Assembly: GCA_003551005.1 (NCBI GenBank)
Contig: PULR01000039.1
Location: 29,892 to 93,891 of the forward strand
DNA from: Mollicutes bacterium
GTDB taxonomy: Bacteria; Bacillota_I; Bacilli_A; Izemoplasmatales; Izemoplasmataceae
Length of the DNA: 64,000 bases
Direction of reading: 5' to 3'
Shown here: positions 54,688 through 64,000 of the stretch, one piece after another
How positions within the stretch are numbered: position 1 is the first letter of the stretch
Layout of the letters: the number at the start of each line of letters is the position of its first letter
Made by a program: the position numbers and the translations under genes
The notes under the pieces: model-generated
What the model was told of the DNA's origin: nothing
Databases searched by the model: none
Seen by the model: the letters and a program-made list of their open reading frames with translations, nothing else

Positions 54688-56655
54688 ATGGCATATAAGG
54701 CTCTCTATCGCACGTATCGTCCTCGGGACTTCGATGAAGTCGCCGGACAGGAACACATCACCCGCACATTCAAGAATGCCTTGAAACACCGTCGTCTTTC
54801 GCATGCCTACCTGTTCAGCGGCCCCCGCGGGACAGGCAAGACCAGCGTCGCCAAGATCATCGCCAAGGGGGTCAACTGCGAGAACGGACCGGCGGCCAAC
54901 CCCTGCAACACCTGCGACATCTGCCGCGGCATCGACAGCAACACGATTAACGACGTCATCGAGATCGACGCCGCGAGCAACAACGGTGTGGATGAAATCC
55001 GGGAGCTACGCGACAAGGTCAAATATCTTCCCGGTGTCGGCCAGTACAAGGTCTACATCATCGACGAGGTGCACATGCTTTCCATCGGAGCTTTCAATGC
55101 GCTTTTGAAAACCCTCGAGGAGCCTCCCAAGCACGTCTTGTTCATTCTTGCGACCACCGAGCCGCACAAGATTCCCTCCACCATCCATTCCCGCTGCCAG
55201 CGTTTCGATTTCCGCGGCATCGGCAAAGCGGAGATTGAAAGCCGGCTCGGTGAGATCATCGAAAAGGAGGCGATCGACATTCGCGATGACGCCATCAGCC
55301 TCATCGCCGAATCTGTCGAAGGCGGCATGCGTGACGCCATCAGCCTTTTGGACCAGGCGCTTGCTTATGCCGAAGGCACCATCGATTCCGAAGCGGTCCA
55401 TGCCATCCGCGGCTCCGTCGGGCATGAGCGGATTCTCGAGATTGCCCAGGCCATTCACGCGGAGGATGCCGTCCGTTCCCTGAACGCTCTGGATAGACTG
55501 CTCGAGGATGGCAAGGAACCCACACGCGTCATCGAGGATGCCACCGCTTTCTACCGCGATTTGCTGCTGCTCAAGAATGCAGGGGAGGATAGCGATAAAA
55601 CCCTCCACGGTAACGAAAAAGCTCAGAACCTGGCCGAGTCGCTGAGCAATCCGCTGCTTTATCATTACATCGACATTCTCAGCGAGTCGAGGCAGCGGAT
55701 GCGGTTCACATCACAAGGACGGCTGCATCTCGAGCTGGCTTTCGTCAAGATGGTCGACCGCGGCTTGAAACAGGATGTGCGTGCACAAGAAAACCTCGAG
55801 AAGTTGGAGTCAAAAGTCCATAATCTGCAGGAAAAGCTTGAAACCATCGAATCCCGGACCCGGGAAGCCCCCTTAGATCAACCCGCCACCGATTCCGATG
55901 AACATCGTGCCCAGGACGTGACACCGGCCGATGCGCTCTTCGATCGTTTTGAATCGGAATCGGAGTCGGAAGTTTCCGACGACCAGACCGAAAAGCATCG
56001 CGAGGACCCGTCGGATGAGAAACGGGACGAACCGGGCGAAGAAACGCCCACCGCACAGACGGAATCAGCTGAAGAAACGGATTCAGCCCCCTCAGAGCAA
56101 CCGAACAAATACCAGAAGCTTTATGAACGCTTTTCGCAGAAGAAATATTCCACCTTCGACATCCGTTATGTCGAGGATGTGCTGAACACCGGCGACCGTC
56201 AGGAACGCATCGACATGACCAAGCGCTGGTACGACCTAGAACGGTTTGTCGACGATGACCGGATGCAGTACGCCAAGATGGTCACCGAAGGGAATCTGGT
56301 CGCCACCAACGGCGTGATGCTGATTGTCACCTATGAAAACACCGTGACGTGCAACCGTCTGATGAAACCCCAGATCAAAGGCGAGATCATCGAGGTCCTC
56401 GAGGCGTATTTCGAACGGCCGATCATGTTCATGGCCCTGCCGGAGCGGGACTGGAAGAAAATCCAGACCGAGTTCCTGAAGAAATTCCGGAAGCAGGAAG
56501 ACAAGGAGTTCATCCGCCTGAGCAAGATCGAGAACGACCGTCTGGTTGAAATCCCTGATAACGAGGATACCTACGAGGATGTCGAAGACGATTCCGTGAA
56601 AGAAGCCAAGGACATCTTTGGTGAAGAAGTGGTTAAGGTCAAGAAAGGAGAATGA
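54688..56655 (+). CDS. dnaX: DNA polymerase III subunit gamma/tau
   Basis: MAYKALYRTYRPRDFDEVAGQEHITRTFKNAL, FSGPRGTGKTSVAKIIAKGVNC, CNTCDIC, DEVHMLSIGAFNALLKTLEEPP. Confidence 0.97.
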   Translation: MAYKALYRTYRPRDFDEVAGQEHITRTFKNALKHRRLSHAYLFSGPRGTGKTSVAKIIAKGVNCENGPAANPCNTCDICRGIDSNTINDVIEIDAASNNGVDEIRELRDKVKYLPGVGQYKVYIIDEVHMLSIGAFNALLKTLEEPPKHVLFILATTEPHKIPSTIHSRCQRFDFRGIGKAEIESRLGEIIEKEAIDIRDDAISLIAESVEGGMRDAISLLDQALAYAEGTIDSEAVHAIRGSVGHERILEIAQAIHAEDAVRSLNALDRLLEDGKEPTRVIEDATAFYRDLLLLKNAGEDSDKTLHGNEKAQNLAESLSNPLLYHYIDILSESRQRMRFTSQGRLHLELAFVKMVDRGLKQDVRAQENLEKLESKVHNLQEKLETIESRTREAPLDQPATDSDEHRAQDVTPADALFDRFESESESEVSDDQTEKHREDPSDEKRDEPGEETPTAQTESAEETDSAPSEQPNKYQKLYERFSQKKYSTFDIRYVEDVLNTGDRQERIDMTKRWYDLERFVDDDRMQYAKMVTEGNLVATNGVMLIVTYENTVTCNRLMKPQIKGEIIEVLEAYFERPIMFMALPERDWKKIQTEFLKKFRKQEDKEFIRLSKIENDRLVEIPDNEDTYEDVEDDSVKEAKDIFGEEVVKVKKGE

Positions 56656-56658
56656 ACA

Positions 56659-56970
56659 ATGGACAGGAACATGATGAAGAAACTACAGGAAATGCAGCAG
56701 GAGATGCACAAGGCGCAGAAGGAGCTCGAAGCTTCAATCTTCTACGGACAGGCCGGAGGCAAGACCGTCGAAGTCGAGTTCAACGGAGCGAAACAGATGC
56801 ACAATCTCTCGATAGATCAAGAAGCGTTCGACCTTCCCGAGGACCTCGAAATTCTGGAGGATACTATAACAGCGGCCGTAAACGACTGCATGCGCAAAAT
56901 CGACGAAGAGACCCAGGAGACGATGGGCCGCTTCACAGAGGGTCTTGGCGGCCTTCCGGGGATGTTCTGA
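56659..56970 (+). CDS. YbaB/EbfC nucleoid-associated protein
   Basis: MMKKLQEMQQEMHKAQKELEASIFYGQAGGKTVEVEFNGAKQM; located between dnaX and recR. Confidence 0.94.
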   Translation: MDRNMMKKLQEMQQEMHKAQKELEASIFYGQAGGKTVEVEFNGAKQMHNLSIDQEAFDLPEDLEILEDTITAAVNDCMRKIDEETQETMGRFTEGLGGLPGMF

Positions 56971-57580
56971 TAGCATCGCCACCAGATATCCCGATGCGCT
57001 CGAGCAGTTGATCGAGCAGTTCATGCGCTACCCCGGGGTCGGACGGAAGACTGCCGAGCGGTTCGCGCTGCACAGCCAGAACCACTTCAAAGACGATGAC
57101 TACGAACGGTTCTCCGAGGTGCTTCTCAGGGTCAAAGAAGAGATCCGCCCCTGCTCTGTCTGCGGAATGTTCACCGACCAGGAACGCTGTGGAATCTGCC
57201 GGGATGAATCCCGGGACCAGACCCGGATTCTGGTCGTCGAAGAAAGCCGCGACGTCCTTGTCTTCGAACGCGGCGGGGACTACCGCGGTCTCTATCATGT
57301 CCTTGGCGGCGTTCTCTCGCCTAGCGAGGGCGTCGGTCCCGACCAGTTGCGGATCCGGGAACTTTTGGAAAGATTGCGGAATCATGCCCACGAAGAGTTG
57401 ATTCTCGCCACCAATCTGAGCGATGAAGGGGAGACGACCGCGCTTTATATCCAAAGGCTGCTTAAAGATACGGACGTGCTGGTGACCCGGATCGCCTACG
57501 GACTGCCCGCGGGCGGAGATGTGTCATATGCGGACGAGGTCACACTGGGAAAAGCTTTGGAAGGTAGAAAAAAGATTTGA
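56945..57580 (+). CDS. recR: Recombination protein RecR
   Basis: LIEQFMRYPGVGRKTAERFALH, CSVCGMFTDQERCGICRDESRD, ATNLSDEGETTALYIQRLL, ARGLPAGGD-like IAYGLPAGGDVSYADEVTLGKALEGRK. Start codon uncertain (TTG 56945). Confidence 0.93.
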   Translation: MAAFRGCSDSIATRYPDALEQLIEQFMRYPGVGRKTAERFALHSQNHFKDDDYERFSEVLLRVKEEIRPCSVCGMFTDQERCGICRDESRDQTRILVVEESRDVLVFERGGDYRGLYHVLGGVLSPSEGVGPDQLRIRELLERLRNHAHEELILATNLSDEGETTALYIQRLLKDTDVLVTRIAYGLPAGGDVSYADEVTLGKALEGRKKI

Positions 57581-57687
57581 GATGTGCTATGATTTTTAAG
57601 AAGGTCAATGTATAATAATAAGTGAAACGACTCAGTGCGAAAGTTACTTGAATTAGAATCCAAGTCACATTGCCAAAGGATGGTAAG

Positions 57688-57978
57688 ATGTTTGAATGGT
57701 TTTCGATGTATGTCGGCGTCCTCTCGGATATCCCCTTGATCGGCCCTGCCTATGACAGTCTTCAAGAAGCGTTCCCTATCGGTCGTTACATTGAGAATGC
57801 ATACGACTTCATCGACACAGAGCTTTCTTACATTGAACAATTGGTTTTTGTCGCCATTTTTGCCGTGATATTCATCCTGGGTCTGATTTCATTTGTCAAG
57901 AAACTGGCGAAATTGCTGATTGTTGTTGCGATTATCTTCGGTATCTGGCTGCTTTACAACCAGGGCGTCATAGGTTGA
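57688..57978 (+). CDS. Small membrane protein of unknown function
   Basis: ATG behind AAAGGATGG; long C-terminal hydrophobic stretch LVFVAIFAVIFILGLISFVKKLAKLLIVVAIIFGIWLLY. Confidence 0.6.
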   Translation: MFEWFSMYVGVLSDIPLIGPAYDSLQEAFPIGRYIENAYDFIDTELSYIEQLVFVAIFAVIFILGLISFVKKLAKLLIVVAIIFGIWLLYNQGVIG

Positions 57979-58051
57979 GGGGAGGAACATCTCCCCTTTT
58001 TCAAGTTGCTTTTGGAAAACGATGAAAACTCGAGATTTTTTTTCTACAATA

Positions 58052-58080
58052 TGGAAAACGCTTTTAAAATATAGTATACT
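58052..58080 (+). promoter_or_regulatory. Predicted promoter of sugar ABC operon with overlapping AAnCGnTT operator
   Basis: TGGAAA-N17-TATACT; AAACGCTT at 58056-58063. Confidence 0.45.
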
Positions 58081-58277
58081 TGACTGATACGTACATAAGT
58101 TGTCGAAGGAAAAAGTGTGGATAAGCGCTTGAATGAGCGCTTTTAGTAACGCCTTTATATAAAGGGTGTGCGTGGCCCCGCTTTTCAAACGCTTCAACGC
58201 GTTTCAACTTGACTACATCCCTTGTTCTATAGTTTCATTAAAGATAGATAAAACTTGGTATAGGAGAGAAGACAGGT

Positions 58278-59450
58278 ATGGAAATCACTCTACAGAACCT
58301 AACAAAAGTTTTCCAGTCTAAGAAAGAGGATGAAGTGGTTGCGGTGGACAATCTTGACATCGTGATCCCATCCGGGAAACTTTATGGTCTCCTAGGCCCT
58401 TCCGGTTGCGGAAAGTCTACGACCCTCTTCATGATCTCCGGATTGCTCAAGCCTACTGAAGGCAAGATCTATTTCGGAGAAGAAGATGTGACCCCTGTCC
58501 CCCCTGAAGACCGGGGTATCGGGCTGGTGTTCCAGAACTACGCCCTCTATCCGCACATGACGGTCAAGCAGAACATCATGTTCCCGCTTGAAAACCTCAA
58601 GATTGACAAGAAGGAAGGACTTAAGAAAGCCCAGGAGATCGCCGACCTTGTCGGCATCGGCCACTTGATGGACCGGAAACCCGCGCAACTTTCCGGTGGA
58701 CAGCAGCAACGTTGCGCCATCGCCCGGGCGCTCGTCAAGGAGCCGCGCGTGCTTCTGCTCGACGAACCGCTCTCGAACCTTGACGCCCGCCTCCGCCTGC
58801 AGACTCGTGAGGAGATCCGTCGGATTCAGCGCGAGACCGGTATTACGACCGTGTTCGTCACGCACGACCAGGAAGAGGCAATGAGCATCAGCGACGAAAT
58901 CGTGGTTCTTGACGAAGGCGTCACACAACAAGTCGGACAACCACAGGATGTCTACGACAAGCCCAACAACCTCTTTGTCGCGAAGTTCCTCGGCACACCG
59001 CCGATTAACCTCTTCGATGGCCGCATCGAGAACGGCAAGATCATGATCGGCGATGCCTATATCGGCAAGAGCGAAGCCGAGGACCAGGAAGTCACCGTCG
59101 GCATCCGTCCCGAAGGCTTCAAAATTGTCGAACGCTCCAGTTTCCAGGTCGAGGTCGAATTCGTCGAGACAATCGGCCGTGACACCACGTTGATCATCAA
59201 CCACCCCAACGTCGAGGTCCAGGGTAGTTTCGAGGACCCCGAGGAAGAAGGCGATGTGACAACGGTCGAAGACACAGAATTCGAAGCATTGAACCTTGAA
59301 ATGGGAAGTGGCAAGTCGATTCAGGACCAGAAAACCTTCCGTGCGATTGTTGATGCAGATTACGGTGTTCAACCAGGCGACACCGTGAAATTCAGCGTCA
59401 AGCCTCACAAAATGCATGTATTCAACAAAGAGACCGGAGAACTCGTCTAG
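58278..59450 (+). CDS. Carbohydrate ABC transporter ATP-binding protein (MalK/UgpC family)
   Basis: [77 protein letters not shown]-terminal TOBE/MOBE region. Confidence 0.93.
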   Translation: MEITLQNLTKVFQSKKEDEVVAVDNLDIVIPSGKLYGLLGPSGCGKSTTLFMISGLLKPTEGKIYFGEEDVTPVPPEDRGIGLVFQNYALYPHMTVKQNIMFPLENLKIDKKEGLKKAQEIADLVGIGHLMDRKPAQLSGGQQQRCAIARALVKEPRVLLLDEPLSNLDARLRLQTREEIRRIQRETGITTVFVTHDQEEAMSISDEIVVLDEGVTQQVGQPQDVYDKPNNLFVAKFLGTPPINLFDGRIENGKIMIGDAYIGKSEAEDQEVTVGIRPEGFKIVERSSFQVEVEFVETIGRDTTLIINHPNVEVQGSFEDPEEEGDVTTVEDTEFEALNLEMGSGKSIQDQKTFRAIVDADYGVQPGDTVKFSVKPHKMHVFNKETGELV

Positions 59451-60371
59451 ATGCTTGAACAAGAACGGAATATAGCAGCCTGGTTCTATCTTGCCCCGGC
59501 TCTGATTCTACTTGCCATCTTCATCTTCTATCCCATCTTCAACTCGTTCGTGCTCGTCGCACTCGAAGACTACAACTATCTGCAACAGACCTATGATGGG
59601 TTCACGCTGACCGGCAACTTCCGAAACGTATTAAACGACCCGAACTTCGGACAGGCCATGCTCAACACGATGCTCATCACCTTCGTCTCGGTTCCGGTCT
59701 CGGTCATCATCGCGCTGTTGATTTCGGTATGGCTGAACGCCATTCCCATCCAGAAAATCCAGGGCTTCTTCCAGACCGTCTTCTTCCTGCCCTATGTAAC
59801 CAACGCCATCGCCATCGGCATGGCATTCGCGTTCATGTTCAACCGCAGGTATGGACTTATCAACTGGTTCCTCGGCCTCTTCGGGATCGACCCCATCAAC
59901 TGGATCAACATGGGCGCGTCCTACGAAAATGCCATGATTACCCTGCTGATCTACATCACGTGGCTGACGCTTGCTTTCAAGATCATCGTCTTCCTCAGCG
60001 GCCTGCAAGGCATCGACAAGCAGTACTATGAGGCGGCCCGCGTCGACTCCGCCTCCCGCGCCCGCATCCTTCGCCGGATCACCGTGCCGCTGCTTTCGCC
60101 GATGATCATGTACATCACGGTCACATCCTTCATCGGTGCTTTCAAGACCTATACCGAAGTCATCGGCATGTTCGGGGAACGCCTCGGCCCGCCGGGGGAT
60201 CCGAACTCGATGACCACGATCGTTGCGCTCGTCTACGATGCGCTTGATCGCTCCGGGGTTCCTGGCGCGATGAGCGAAGCCGCCGCCGCCGCGCTCATAC
60301 TCTTTGCAATCACGCTCGTGTTCACTTTCGTCAACATGCAAGTGAGCAAGAAGCGGGTCCACTACGGATAG
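59451..60371 (+). CDS. Carbohydrate ABC transporter permease (MalF/UgpA-like)
   Basis: Multiple TM segments; EAA loop YYEAARVDSASRARILRRITVPLLSPMI. Confidence 0.92.
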   Translation: MLEQERNIAAWFYLAPALILLAIFIFYPIFNSFVLVALEDYNYLQQTYDGFTLTGNFRNVLNDPNFGQAMLNTMLITFVSVPVSVIIALLISVWLNAIPIQKIQGFFQTVFFLPYVTNAIAIGMAFAFMFNRRYGLINWFLGLFGIDPINWINMGASYENAMITLLIYITWLTLAFKIIVFLSGLQGIDKQYYEAARVDSASRARILRRITVPLLSPMIMYITVTSFIGAFKTYTEVIGMFGERLGPPGDPNSMTTIVALVYDALDRSGVPGAMSEAAAAALILFAITLVFTFVNMQVSKKRVHYG

Positions 60372-60383
60372 GAGTGAAATGAG

Positions 60384-61289
60384 ATGCAAAACGTTGAAAA
60401 CGTAGAAGAGCTATACGAAGACGAACAGAAGATACGATTTAAACGGCGCATGCGGCTTGCGCTCGTGTATGCAGTTGTCATCTTCTTCGCCATCTTCATC
60501 ATCATCCCCTTCTATTGGATGGTGATCACCGCGTTCAAGACCGAAACACAGGTCTTCATGTCCCCGCCGATGCTCTGGGTCAACCCCGGGGAATGGCAAT
60601 GGGTCAACTTCTCGCTTGCGCTTGAACGCGCCCCATTCATACGGTATCTAGCGAACACGGTTCTGGTCGCGATTCTATCGACCGCCGGAACCATCATCAC
60701 GACGATTCTCTCCGGCTTCGCGTTCGCAAGGTTGAACTTCAAGGGCCGCGACGTGCTGTTCATGATCCTGATCGCAACCATGATGATTCCCGGCGAGATC
60801 TTCGTCGTCACCAACTTTCTGACCATCACATCCTTCGGCTGGATTGAAGATCAGACCTTCGTGGAAGCGGTGCTGGCGATGACCGTTCCCTTCATGACCA
60901 GCGTATTCTTCCTCTTCTTCCTGCGACAGGCGTTCAAGCAGATTCCCGATGAACTCTATTACGCCGCGAAGGTGGACGGGAAAACCGACTGGCAGTATCT
61001 GTGGGGCATCATGGTCCCCGTTGCGCTGCCGACCATCACCACCATCACCATCCTCAACGCCATGAACACCTGGAACGCTTATGTGTGGCCCCGTCTGATT
61101 TCCCAGCGAGAAGAGTTCCAGCTGGTCTCGAACGGACTGCGTGACGCGTTCGACGACACCGCGGGCCGCATCATGTACCACGAACAAATGGCCGCTTCCA
61201 TCATTGTCACCGTGCCGCTCATCATCGCCTTCCTCATCCTCAAGAAATACATCATGCGGGGCGTTTCACGCAGCGGCATCAAAGGTTGA
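60384..61289 (+). CDS. Carbohydrate ABC transporter permease (MalG/UgpE-like)
   Basis: EAA loop IPDELYYAAKVDGKTDWQYLWGIMVPVALPTI; C-terminal KKYIMRGVSRSGIKG. Confidence 0.92.
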   Translation: MQNVENVEELYEDEQKIRFKRRMRLALVYAVVIFFAIFIIIPFYWMVITAFKTETQVFMSPPMLWVNPGEWQWVNFSLALERAPFIRYLANTVLVAILSTAGTIITTILSGFAFARLNFKGRDVLFMILIATMMIPGEIFVVTNFLTITSFGWIEDQTFVEAVLAMTVPFMTSVFFLFFLRQAFKQIPDELYYAAKVDGKTDWQYLWGIMVPVALPTITTITILNAMNTWNAYVWPRLISQREEFQLVSNGLRDAFDDTAGRIMYHEQMAASIIVTVPLIIAFLILKKYIMRGVSRSGIKG

Positions 61290-61340
61290 CGCCGCACAGT
61301 TGCAACTTGACACGTCCGTGTCCTGTGCAAACCCTTTCGT

Positions 61341-61348
61341 GTTATAAT
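61341..61348 (+). promoter_or_regulatory. Predicted extended -10 promoter for the solute-binding protein
   Basis: GTTATAAT in the permease-SBP intergenic gap (61290-61404). Confidence 0.5.
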
Positions 61349-61404
61349 GGGAGATGGCACGGAGGGACCACTATAGAAACAAATAATAAGGAGGAGCATT
61401 CCCG

Positions 61405-62886
61405 ATGAAAAAACTAGGCATTCTTTTACTTTCGTTGACATTCGTCCTCTCGCTTTCCGCCTGCGCTCTATTTACCGGCGAAGAAGCAGAGGATATTGAT
61501 GTCAACATCCCCGATGAGTTCCCCGAAGAGGACATCAGCCTCACGATGTGGCACGCCTTCGGTGAAGACAACCAGGCTCTGCTGGATCAGATGTTCGATG
61601 AGTTCACCGATGAATACCCCAACGTCGAGATCGAACAACTCAGCCAGGGTGGCTACGACGGCCTGCGCGAATCGACCGTACAAGGCATTGTCAGCGGCAC
61701 CATGCCCGATATCGTCATGGGGTATCCCGACCATTTCGTCGAGTACTTGAACGGTAACGCCCTCGTGCCGCTCGACGAATATGCGGACCATGATGATTTC
61801 GGCACCGACCTCGACGACTTCATCCCCGGTTTCCTTGAGGAGAACCAGCAGTACGCGGACGGCAACATGTACTCGCTGCCCCTCTTCAAATCCACGGAGA
61901 TGGTCGTCTACAACAAGACCGTCATGGACTATTTCTTCGAAGATGACGACAACATCGAATTCAGCCTAGACCAGCCCCTGACCTGGGACGACATCGAGTA
62001 CATGGAAGAGCAGATCGAATGGGACGACGAGGCCATGGACGAACTGGTCGAGAACCGAGACGCCTTCCCCGATGAAGCCGGCATCGCCGATCACGATGAA
62101 CCCTTCCTGATCAACATCGACAGCGCGGCGAACTTCTTCATCAACTCCACGTACCAGTGGGACGGCGAATACACCGACCAGGACGGCAACATCCTCGTCG
62201 ACAACGAGAACAACCGCGACATGCTTCACTATTTCGACGGGCTGTTCGATGACGAAGTCGTCGCCATGCCGATTGAATGGGACGAGAACTACGGCTCGAC
62301 CCCCTTCAGCCAAGGTCTTACGCTGATGAGCCAAGGGTCAACCGCCGGTGCGCGCCACAACATCCCCTCGCATGAGGACGGCGCCTTCGGTACTTTCGAC
62401 ATGGGTGTCGTTCCCGCGATTCAGAAACACGCCAGCGAGGATGAAGGCACCATGTCCGCCCAGCAGCAGGGCCCCAACATCGCCATCATGAGCGAGACCA
62501 CCGACGAAGAGCGCCTCGCGGCGTGGAAGCTCATCGAGTTCATGACCAACACCGAGAACACCGCCTTCTTCTCGATGGAGACCGGCTACATGCCGGTGCG
62601 GACCTCGGCATTCCAGACTGATGAATACCAGGACTATCTCGCGCTGGCCGAAGAGGACATCGACGACCTTGAAGGCGACGAGCGTGACGACTATCCCTTC
62701 GCGCTCGCGAACGCCGCGGCCCAGGCGCAGGAAGACTACTATCGTTTCGACCCCGCCTTCGTCGGCCGCATTACATCCAGCAGCGCCCGCCAGCAATCCG
62801 AGAACCTCTTCGAATCCATCTACGCCGGCACGCGGGATGTCGACGAGGCCATCGCCTACATGCTTGACCAGCTCGGCGCGAACTAA
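61405..62886 (+). CDS. Carbohydrate ABC transporter substrate-binding lipoprotein
   Basis: Lipobox LSAC; ISLTMWHAFGEDNQALLDQMFDEFTDEYPNVEIEQLSQGGYDGL; MSQGSTAGARHNIP. Confidence 0.93.
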   Translation: MKKLGILLLSLTFVLSLSACALFTGEEAEDIDVNIPDEFPEEDISLTMWHAFGEDNQALLDQMFDEFTDEYPNVEIEQLSQGGYDGLRESTVQGIVSGTMPDIVMGYPDHFVEYLNGNALVPLDEYADHDDFGTDLDDFIPGFLEENQQYADGNMYSLPLFKSTEMVVYNKTVMDYFFEDDDNIEFSLDQPLTWDDIEYMEEQIEWDDEAMDELVENRDAFPDEAGIADHDEPFLINIDSAANFFINSTYQWDGEYTDQDGNILVDNENNRDMLHYFDGLFDDEVVAMPIEWDENYGSTPFSQGLTLMSQGSTAGARHNIPSHEDGAFGTFDMGVVPAIQKHASEDEGTMSAQQQGPNIAIMSETTDEERLAAWKLIEFMTNTENTAFFSMETGYMPVRTSAFQTDEYQDYLALAEEDIDDLEGDERDDYPFALANAAAQAQEDYYRFDPAFVGRITSSSARQQSENLFESIYAGTRDVDEAIAYMLDQLGAN

Positions 62887-62904
62887 ACCACACATATTTC
62901 GCCT

Positions 62905-62930
62905 CCACCCTTGCGGGTTTGCAAGGGTGG
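62905..62930 (+). terminator. Hairpin downstream of the substrate-binding protein gene (probable terminator)
   Basis: CCACCCTTGC-gggttt-GCAAGGGTGG; the T tract is weak and displaced. Confidence 0.45.
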
Positions 62931-62973
62931 GGGCACCCTGCTTTAAATTTTTACTCAGTATAGGAAGATTCTT

Positions 62974-64000
62974 GTGCGAAGCTTCACCTTGTTTATTATC
63001 ATCGCTTTTGCAGCCTTTATGACAGCTGGTGCGAAGACGACATCGAAGTCACCTTTGAAATGCCGGACGGAGAAGTCTATGACAGCGTCAGTGTCGATGA
63101 AGACGGTCAGCTGGAAGGCTATCCGATGCCGGAACTGGAAGACGAGTATTTCCTCGGCTGGTTTACGGATGAAGAACGGACCGATCGCTTCTATTTCGAC
63201 GTAGATGCTCAGTTTGATGAAAGCGCTACCCTCTACGCCGATACCAAGCCTTATGAAGAAGGTACGCTGGAGACACCGCTCACCGATGAGCTGACCCTTG
63301 ACAGCGAGGACTACGAAGGCAAAAACTTCTTCGACGACGGCATCGGCGAAGCCGAACTCCACGCGCCCATCGATGGCGACACGTCCTACCATACGGTGGA
63401 CGAAGCCGGAGACGCTGAGGTCCGTTACCTGAACGTCGATACGCCGGAATCCACGGCGGAAATTGACCCCTGGGGGAAAGCGTCAAGCGACTTTGTTCGT
63501 GAAGCGCTTGAAGAGGCGGACACCATTGTCCTCGAATACGAACCCCATCCCGAAGAGGGCCATCCGGCTGAACATCCGACCGTCGGTCGACAAGGCACGT
63601 TCGGACGTGAACTCGTCTATGTCTGGGCGGATGGCCGCCTGTTGAATCTCGAGCTGATCGAGAAAGCCTTCTCGCCCGCCTCCAACACCGCGCAGTCCCA
63701 ATACGGAGAATACCTGCGGATCGCCGAGCACAACGCTGAGATGAGCGGACGCAGACTGCACGGAGAAGACGACCCCGACTACGACCGCGACGACCCGGAG
63801 GAAGTCAGTGTCACTGACCTGGTTGAAGACAGCGACGACTATCTTGATGAGTTTGTCAACGTCGAGGGTGTCATTACGGATGTCGACGGCAATGACGGAT
63901 TCTATCTCTCGGACGGCGATGAGGAAATCTACTTCTATACGATGGACACCACGACCTATTTGATTGAAACTGGAAATGAGATTCGTGTCGAAGAGGCCTA
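62974..64000 (+). CDS. Secreted nuclease lipoprotein: signal peptide, InlB/Flg_new-type repeat, thermonuclease (SNase-like) domain, OB-fold; apparent 1-nt frameshift at about 63028-63031; 3' truncated by window edge
   Basis: Frame 1: MRSFTLFIIIAFAAFMTAG. Frame 0 from 63030: CEDDIEVTFEMPDGEVYDSVSVDEDGQLEGYPMPELEDEYFLGWFTDEERTDRFYF..., then VRYLNVDTPESTAEIDPWGKASSDFVREALEEADTIVLEY...GRELVYVWADGRLLNLELIEKAF. No stop in frame 0 to the window end. Confidence 0.8.

What the first reader, a model, noticed from the sequence alone, without database searches (positions are those of the whole stretch)
62974..64000. Frameshift in the lipobox of a thermonuclease-like lipoprotein that the ORF track misses
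Frame 1 encodes a signal peptide (FTLFIIIAFAAFMTAG) and frame 0 continues at once with CEDDIEVTFEMP...; joined, they give a textbook lipobox (TAG^C). One T missing from GGTTGC (read here as GGTGC at about 63028-63032) explains the break. Frame 0 then stays open for about 970 nt through an InlB/Flg_new-like repeat, a thermonuclease domain with conserved VDTPE and GREL motifs, and an OB-fold. The track shows only a meaningless 76-aa ORF. This is either a real pseudogene or phase-variable gene, or an assembly/sequencing error.
Basis: partly seen in the sequence, partly recalled or inferred. Interest (0 to 1): 0.6.

Follow-up and report, generated by a model that had tools for sequence, protein, structure and literature searches.

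The report
Frame-broken surface DNA-digesting enzyme gene
At the end of this contig, the gene for an ordinary membrane-anchored DNA-digesting enzyme of a wall-less bacterium (relatives live in soda lakes) is one base out of frame just where its export signal ends; this is either a recent loss of the gene or a base error in the assembly, and only the raw reads can tell.

Summary
Frame 1 from GTG 62974 encodes a signal peptide; frame 0 from the Cys codon at 63030 is open to the last base. That base is also the contig end, so about 40 codons at the 3' end are missing too. In all eleven full-length homologues checked, the lipobox Cys aligns with this Cys in one frame. About 36 distinct homologues carry an in-frame lipoprotein signal. 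Two paralogues in the same genome are intact.

The gene is the SNase (thermonuclease) lipoprotein that follows a sugar-type ABC importer in a locus (dnaX-ybaB-recR-ABC-permease-permease-SBP-SNase) conserved across this order of Mollicutes; a similar pairing is published for mycoplasmas. The syntenic orthologue in a related soda-lake MAG is intact, with 19 residues before the Cys, as here.

The break is recent: catalytic residues are intact, there is no second lesion, and codon constraint is normal. No repeat or slippery site at the junction could support phase variation. A real recent deletion (about 0.5) and a consensus error (about 0.42) cannot be separated without reads. Both conserved SNase-domain cysteines are replaced in this copy. 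The gene is an ordinary member of a known family; interest is low.

The parts
58278..59450 (+). ABC importer ATP-binding protein (MalK/UgpC type), first gene of the linked importer
   Evidence: Pfam ABC_tran and OB_MalK; NCBIfam UgpC/GlcV below cut-off; same position in related genomes
59451..60371 (+). ABC importer permease (MalF/UgpA type)
   Evidence: BPD_transp_1; UgpA-like
60384..61289 (+). ABC importer permease (MalG/UgpE type)
   Evidence: BPD_transp_1; UgpE-like
61405..62886 (+). Solute-binding lipoprotein of the importer (intact in-frame lipobox LSAC)
   Evidence: SBP_bac_8/SBP_bac_1; weak matches to mycoplasma P68 surface lipoprotein and UgpB; in-frame lipobox; SNase gene directly downstream of it in 18 other genomes
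62901..62934 (+). Strong RNA hairpin between the SBP and SNase genes (15 bp stem)
   Evidence: Fold -30.8 kcal/mol, z -4.6; a hairpin of different sequence at the same place in the syntenic locus L043, z -7.2
62962..62967 (+). Shine-Dalgarno-like AGGAAG, 6 bases before the GTG
   Evidence: read directly from the sequence
62974..63030 (+). Signal peptide in frame 1: start GTG, n-region Arg, hydrophobic core, MTAG before the Cys; 19 residues, as in the intact syntenic orthologue
63021..63032 (+). Junction where the frame changes: a net shortfall of one base relative to homologues; no homopolymer of 3 or more and no repeat within it
63030..63998 (+). Mature part in frame 0, starting at the would-be lipidated Cys; open to the contig end, about 40 C-terminal codons missing
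63048..63239 (+). Flg_new (InlB-type / Listeria-Bacteroides) repeat
   Evidence: PF09479, 27.2 bits against cut-off 27
63372..63743 (+). SNase domain; DGDT (63372), VRYL (63420), DTPE (63438) and FGREL (63600) motifs intact, so the D21, R35, D40, T41, E43 and R87 equivalents are kept; the family's two Cys are Pro (63366-63368, just before the DGDT motif) and Arg (63498-63500) here
   Evidence: PF00565, 32.9 bits against cut-off 21; PDB thermonuclease alignment

Best explanation
This is the SNase-family surface lipoprotein gene that accompanies a sugar-type ABC importer in an order-wide conserved locus of free-living Mollicutes, carrying a recent frame break. In an intact copy, the signal peptide takes the protein across the membrane, the lipobox Cys is lipidated and anchors it, the SNase domain cuts extracellular nucleic acid, and the neighbouring importer probably takes up products. 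In the sequence as assembled, translation from GTG 62974 leaves the frame at the lipobox and ends after 76 codons, so neither anchor nor nuclease is made. I lean towards a real, recent, unregulated single-base deletion allele (about 0.5) over a consensus error (about 0.42). That it is an SNase lipoprotein gene with a broken frame as assembled is about 0.97 certain. Shown: frames, homologues, synteny, intact catalytic residues. Inferred: lipidation, activity, feeding the importer, and the cause of the break.
For: Identity: Flg_new + SNase, thermonuclease in PDB. Lipobox Cys aligns in 11 of 11 full-length homologues, and about 36 distinct homologues have in-frame lipoprotein signals, two of them by eye because the script's strict pattern or start choice missed them. 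Own-genome paralogues on C22 and C31 are intact. The syntenic orthologue L043 is intact with 19 residues before Cys; its SBP is 64% and its SNase 57% identical to the window's. Locus conserved: SBP followed by SNase in 18 other genomes; dnaX-ybaB-recR-ABC-SBP-SNase order. Recent: third codon positions differ about twice as often as first and second along the whole open part, and distance to L041 is about that of intact L043; tree end branch 0.45 against 0.39 for L043. For a real allele: no other mid-gene frame break found in the window or the adjacent 20 kb, and only one credible one, a transposase-like gene identified by eye, in 191 kb of contig starts; the junction is not a homopolymer; Illumina/MEGAHIT data in the study that appears to have produced the genus's named MAGs.
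Against: The gene is conserved in place across the order and has no second lesion, which suits an error or a very young allele better than an established loss. The contig breaks 970 bases further on, and three related genomes also break inside this operon, which hints at assembly trouble here. No reads and no second genome of the same species were available; the closest homologue is 57% identical.
Confidence: 0.5

Rival explanations
1. Consensus error: the organism has an intact in-frame gene, and one base was lost in sequencing or in the metagenome assembly near the contig end.
For: Gene conserved in position across the order, no other lesion in 323 codons, normal codon constraint, contig end 970 bases away, related assemblies also end within this operon.
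Against: Single-base indels outside homopolymers are rare in short-read de Bruijn contigs (general knowledge). The rest of the window and the adjacent 20 kb are free of mid-gene frame breaks. The site is far more than one k-mer (at most 131 in the study named) from the contig end. It is inferred, not shown, that this MAG comes from that study.
Confidence: 0.42
2. Phase-variable or programmed frameshift: the break is functional and the protein is made part of the time by slippage.
For: Surface lipoproteins of Mollicutes are often phase-variable (general knowledge), and the break falls exactly at the lipobox.
Against: No run longer than TTTT and no tandem repeat in 62964-63060, and none at the junction. 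No X XXY YYZ heptamer there (read directly). No homologue shows a frame change there.
Confidence: 0.03
3. A cytosolic, unanchored nuclease is made from ATG 63060 or another downstream start.
For: ATG 63060 opens the rest of frame 0.
Against: No clear Shine-Dalgarno sequence in front of it, it would cut off the first strand of the Flg_new domain, no homologue starts there, and every homologue has an export signal.
Confidence: 0.05

Closest known systems
Mycoplasma agalactiae MAG_5040 and its relatives in the M. hominis group (SNase surface lipoproteins)
   Same: Lipoprotein signal, SNase domain with the same metal-binding and catalytic residues, and a gene next to a solute-binding lipoprotein (P80) and a putative sugar ABC transporter; active nuclease in vitro (PMC3585158).
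   Different: Gene order differs (P80, SNase, then the ABC genes; here ABC genes, SBP, SNase). The passages read describe no Flg_new repeat. The window copy is frame-broken.
Extracellular nucleases and DNA-degradation loci of Candidatus Izemoplasmatales
   Same: Several secreted nucleases per genome, some next to ABC transporters thought to import nucleosides or nucleobases, in free-living sediment Mollicutes (PMC8289736); thermonuclease in the locus of an isolate that grows on DNA (PMC8397711).
   Different: Those loci also hold lamin-tail-domain proteins and further nucleases and phosphohydrolases; the lamin-tail (PF00932) and Exo_endo_phos (PF03372) families were not found in this genome. 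Whether the dnaX-linked locus is among those published was not checked gene by gene.
Staphylococcus aureus thermonuclease (SNase)
   Same: SNase domain by sequence, with D21, R35, D40, T41, E43 and R87 equivalents kept.
   Different: Secreted and unanchored; no Flg_new repeat, no C-terminal extra domain.

Membership tests
SNase (PF00565) nuclease | Profile match above the curated cut-off | tested here: met
   32.9 bits against 21
SNase (PF00565) nuclease | Metal-binding and catalytic residues present | tested here: met
   DGDT, VRYL, DTPE and FGREL intact (alignment to PDB thermonucleases)
SNase (PF00565) nuclease | Nuclease activity | not testable with these tools
   no bench work
Bacterial lipoprotein | Signal peptide and lipobox Cys in one reading frame with the mature protein | tested here: not met
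   Frame changes between MTAG (frame 1) and Cys 63030 (frame 0); met in about 36 homologues
Importer-linked SNase lipoprotein locus of this order | SNase gene directly downstream of the solute-binding protein gene | tested here: met
   SBP stop 62886, SNase start 62974; same in 18 other genomes and in L043
Phase-variable surface lipoprotein | Hypermutable repeat at the switch point | tested here: not met
   No run over TTTT and no tandem repeat in 62964-63060; invertible elements were not searched for
Pseudogene | Lesion confirmed in the organism's DNA | not testable with these tools
   no reads held; no second genome of the species found

The most novel reading that the evidence does not exclude
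The maltose-type importer next to this nuclease does not import sugars but products of nucleic-acid digestion, and the nuclease-importer pair is an old Mollicutes module shared by free-living soda-lake and sediment species and parasitic mycoplasmas; the window shows a lineage losing the nuclease half.
Probability: 0.25. Interest if true: 0.35.

Novelty: new member of a known kind. Interest (0 to 1): 0.13.

Why it matters
By itself it matters little: one broken or mis-assembled copy of a known kind of gene. It is a useful example of a gene lost from annotation by a one-base frame break combined with a contig end. The by-product is a conserved locus, dnaX-ybaB-recR-ABC importer-SNase lipoprotein, across an order of Mollicutes; together with the P80-SNase-ABC arrangement of mycoplasmas it suggests what that importer may carry, and that can be tested.

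Tried and rejected
Phase variation: rejected, no repeat at the junction. Programmed frameshift: rejected, no slippery heptamer. Downstream start at 63060: rejected on homologues. Old pseudogene: rejected, no second lesion, normal codon-position bias, no clearly faster branch. That the gene is a stray lineage-specific paralogue (my first idea, because the closest same-genus relatives are in another neighbourhood): rejected after L043 and the order-wide synteny. Contig continuation: the last 201 bases match nowhere else in the genome. Viral contigs: no relative. The first genome-contig scan with the single protein found nothing; the alignment found 25 loci. Structure prediction from eight sequences was poor (mean pLDDT 60, SNase part mostly below 60), so it was not searched and the Cys pair could not be placed. 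A codon-usage frame-break scan cannot see breaks as close to a gene start as this one (it did not flag 63030); it was used only for mid-gene breaks elsewhere. It gave five candidates in 191 kb, of which one (transposase-like, L092) looks real on inspection.

Full report
Observation. GGTGC is at 63028-63032. Frame 1 from GTG 62974, 6 bases after an AGGAAG, encodes a 19-residue signal peptide ending MTAG. Frame 0 has Cys at 63030 and stays open for 323 codons to the last complete codon of the window. Frame 0 upstream is open only to a TAG at 62961 and has no ATG, GTG or TTG before 63060. The window's last base is the last base of a 93,891-base contig of a 1.35 Mb, 97% complete genome, so the gene is cut at its 3' end as well; homologues run about 40 residues further. 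The ORF at 63060-63998 is listed once open ends are allowed, so the contig end is part of why the track missed the gene.

Is it more than chance? Scanning both strands for a start, a signal peptide with a lipobox pattern, a Cys codon in the same or a shifted frame and 100 open codons after it finds two genuine lipoprotein genes and, in a shifted frame, only this site. Random sequence of the same nearest-neighbour composition gives 0.017 such +1 sites per 64 kb and no -1 sites in 60 runs. Decisive is homology: the eleven full-length homologues with the Flg_new repeat all have their lipobox Cys at exactly the position of Cys 63030, in one frame with a signal peptide. Of about 36 distinct homologues in related genomes, 34 pass a strict lipobox pattern in the first 60 residues and the other two have the lipoprotein signal by eye.

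What it is. The open frame matches Flg_new just at its cut-off and SNase well above it, and the profile of six homologues finds staphylococcal thermonuclease in the PDB at about 1e-14. The metal-binding and catalytic residues are intact (DGDT, VRYL, DTPE, FGREL). The genome has two further SNase lipoproteins, on C22 and C31, both intact.

Context. Upstream lie an ATP-binding protein, two permeases and a solute-binding lipoprotein of a sugar-type ABC importer, preceded by recR, ybaB and dnaX. In 18 other genomes of the same order an SNase gene lies directly downstream of the homologous solute-binding protein gene (one of these, G044, is weak), and in the loci read in full the order dnaX-ybaB-recR-ABC-permease-permease-SBP-SNase holds, followed in several by a large aBig_2-domain lipoprotein. 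The closest syntenic copy is L043, from a soda-lake MAG filed under Acetothermia: SBP 64% identical, SNase 57% identical, intact, and with the same number of residues (19) before the Cys. A strong hairpin lies between SBP and SNase in both, at the same place but with different sequence. Named relatives of the same genus are 'Mollicutes bacterium' MAGs whose isolate names (T1Sed10, B1Sed10) match the samples of a soda-lake sediment study; that study used Illumina reads and MEGAHIT and described its Mollicutes MAGs as free-living anaerobic fermenters like Izimaplasma (PMC6146748). That the window's genome is from the same study is an inference.

Cause of the break. It is young: no second lesion; third codon positions differ about twice as often as first and second from every homologue, evenly along the open part; and the copy is about as far from L041 as intact L043 is (tree). 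Phase variation lacks a substrate: no run over TTTT, no tandem repeat, none at the junction. For a real allele: the rest of the window shows no mid-gene frame break, neither does the adjacent 20 kb, and 191 kb of other contig starts give one that looks real, in a transposase-like gene; short-read contigs rarely carry such indels. For an error: the gene is conserved in place, and the contig ends soon after, as do related contigs within this operon. I put a real recent deletion at 0.5, a consensus error at 0.42 and everything else at 0.08.

An odd detail. All ten homologues compared have two Cys in the SNase domain, before DGDT and in the following helix; the window copy has Pro and Arg there, so its only Cys is the lipobox one. 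Losing both together fits loss of a disulfide in a copy that was still under selection, but the pairing was not shown; the structure model was too poor.

Mechanism. In intact copies the protein would be exported, lipid-anchored, and digest extracellular nucleic acid at the surface (inferred from families). Published parallels are close: MAG_5040 of Mycoplasma agalactiae is an SNase surface lipoprotein, active in vitro, encoded between lipoprotein P80, modelled as a solute-binding protein, and a putative sugar ABC transporter (PMC3585158); a review states that some mycoplasma nuclease and ABC transporter genes form co-expressed operons for uptake of nucleotide precursors (PMC12115388); Izemoplasmatales have several extracellular nucleases, some beside ABC transporters (PMC8289736). 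So the importer may carry nuclease products; its substrate is not known from anything done here. The window genome does have a Bmp-family (PF02608) protein, a family that includes nucleoside-binding lipoproteins, elsewhere.

Verdict. A correct and well-read observation of an ordinary thing: a new member of a known kind of gene, with a one-base frame break of unresolved origin near a contig end.

Noticed in passing
54688-62886, with L129-L138 and L043: Conserved locus dnaX-ybaB-recR-ABC importer-SBP-SNase lipoprotein (then often a large aBig_2 lipoprotein and a second nuclease) across an order of Mollicutes; similar to the P80-SNase-ABC arrangement of mycoplasmas.
   Followed up: partly
62901-62934 and L043 892-930: Strong hairpin between the SBP and SNase genes, kept in position but not in sequence; in the window a weaker terminator-like hairpin (62924-62944) overlaps its 3' arm, an attenuator-like layout. 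No Rfam match.
   Followed up: partly
63366-63368 (Pro) and 63498-63500 (Arg): Both Cys of the SNase domain that all ten compared homologues keep are replaced in this copy.
   Followed up: partly
L043 (PXEP01000040.1): Contig filed under a Candidatus Acetothermia MAG but carrying Mollicutes-like SBP and SNase genes; probably misbinned.
   Followed up: no
L107 (G000:C40), L097 (G000:C30): Small contigs of the window's own genome that look foreign: an MCM-helicase-like protein, and a long simple-repeat stretch.
   Followed up: no
L002 (G000:C31), L043 3478-4461, L131 10413-11327: A second kind of SNase lipoprotein, apparently fused in tandem to the first on C31 of this genome but a separate gene in relatives.
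   Followed up: no
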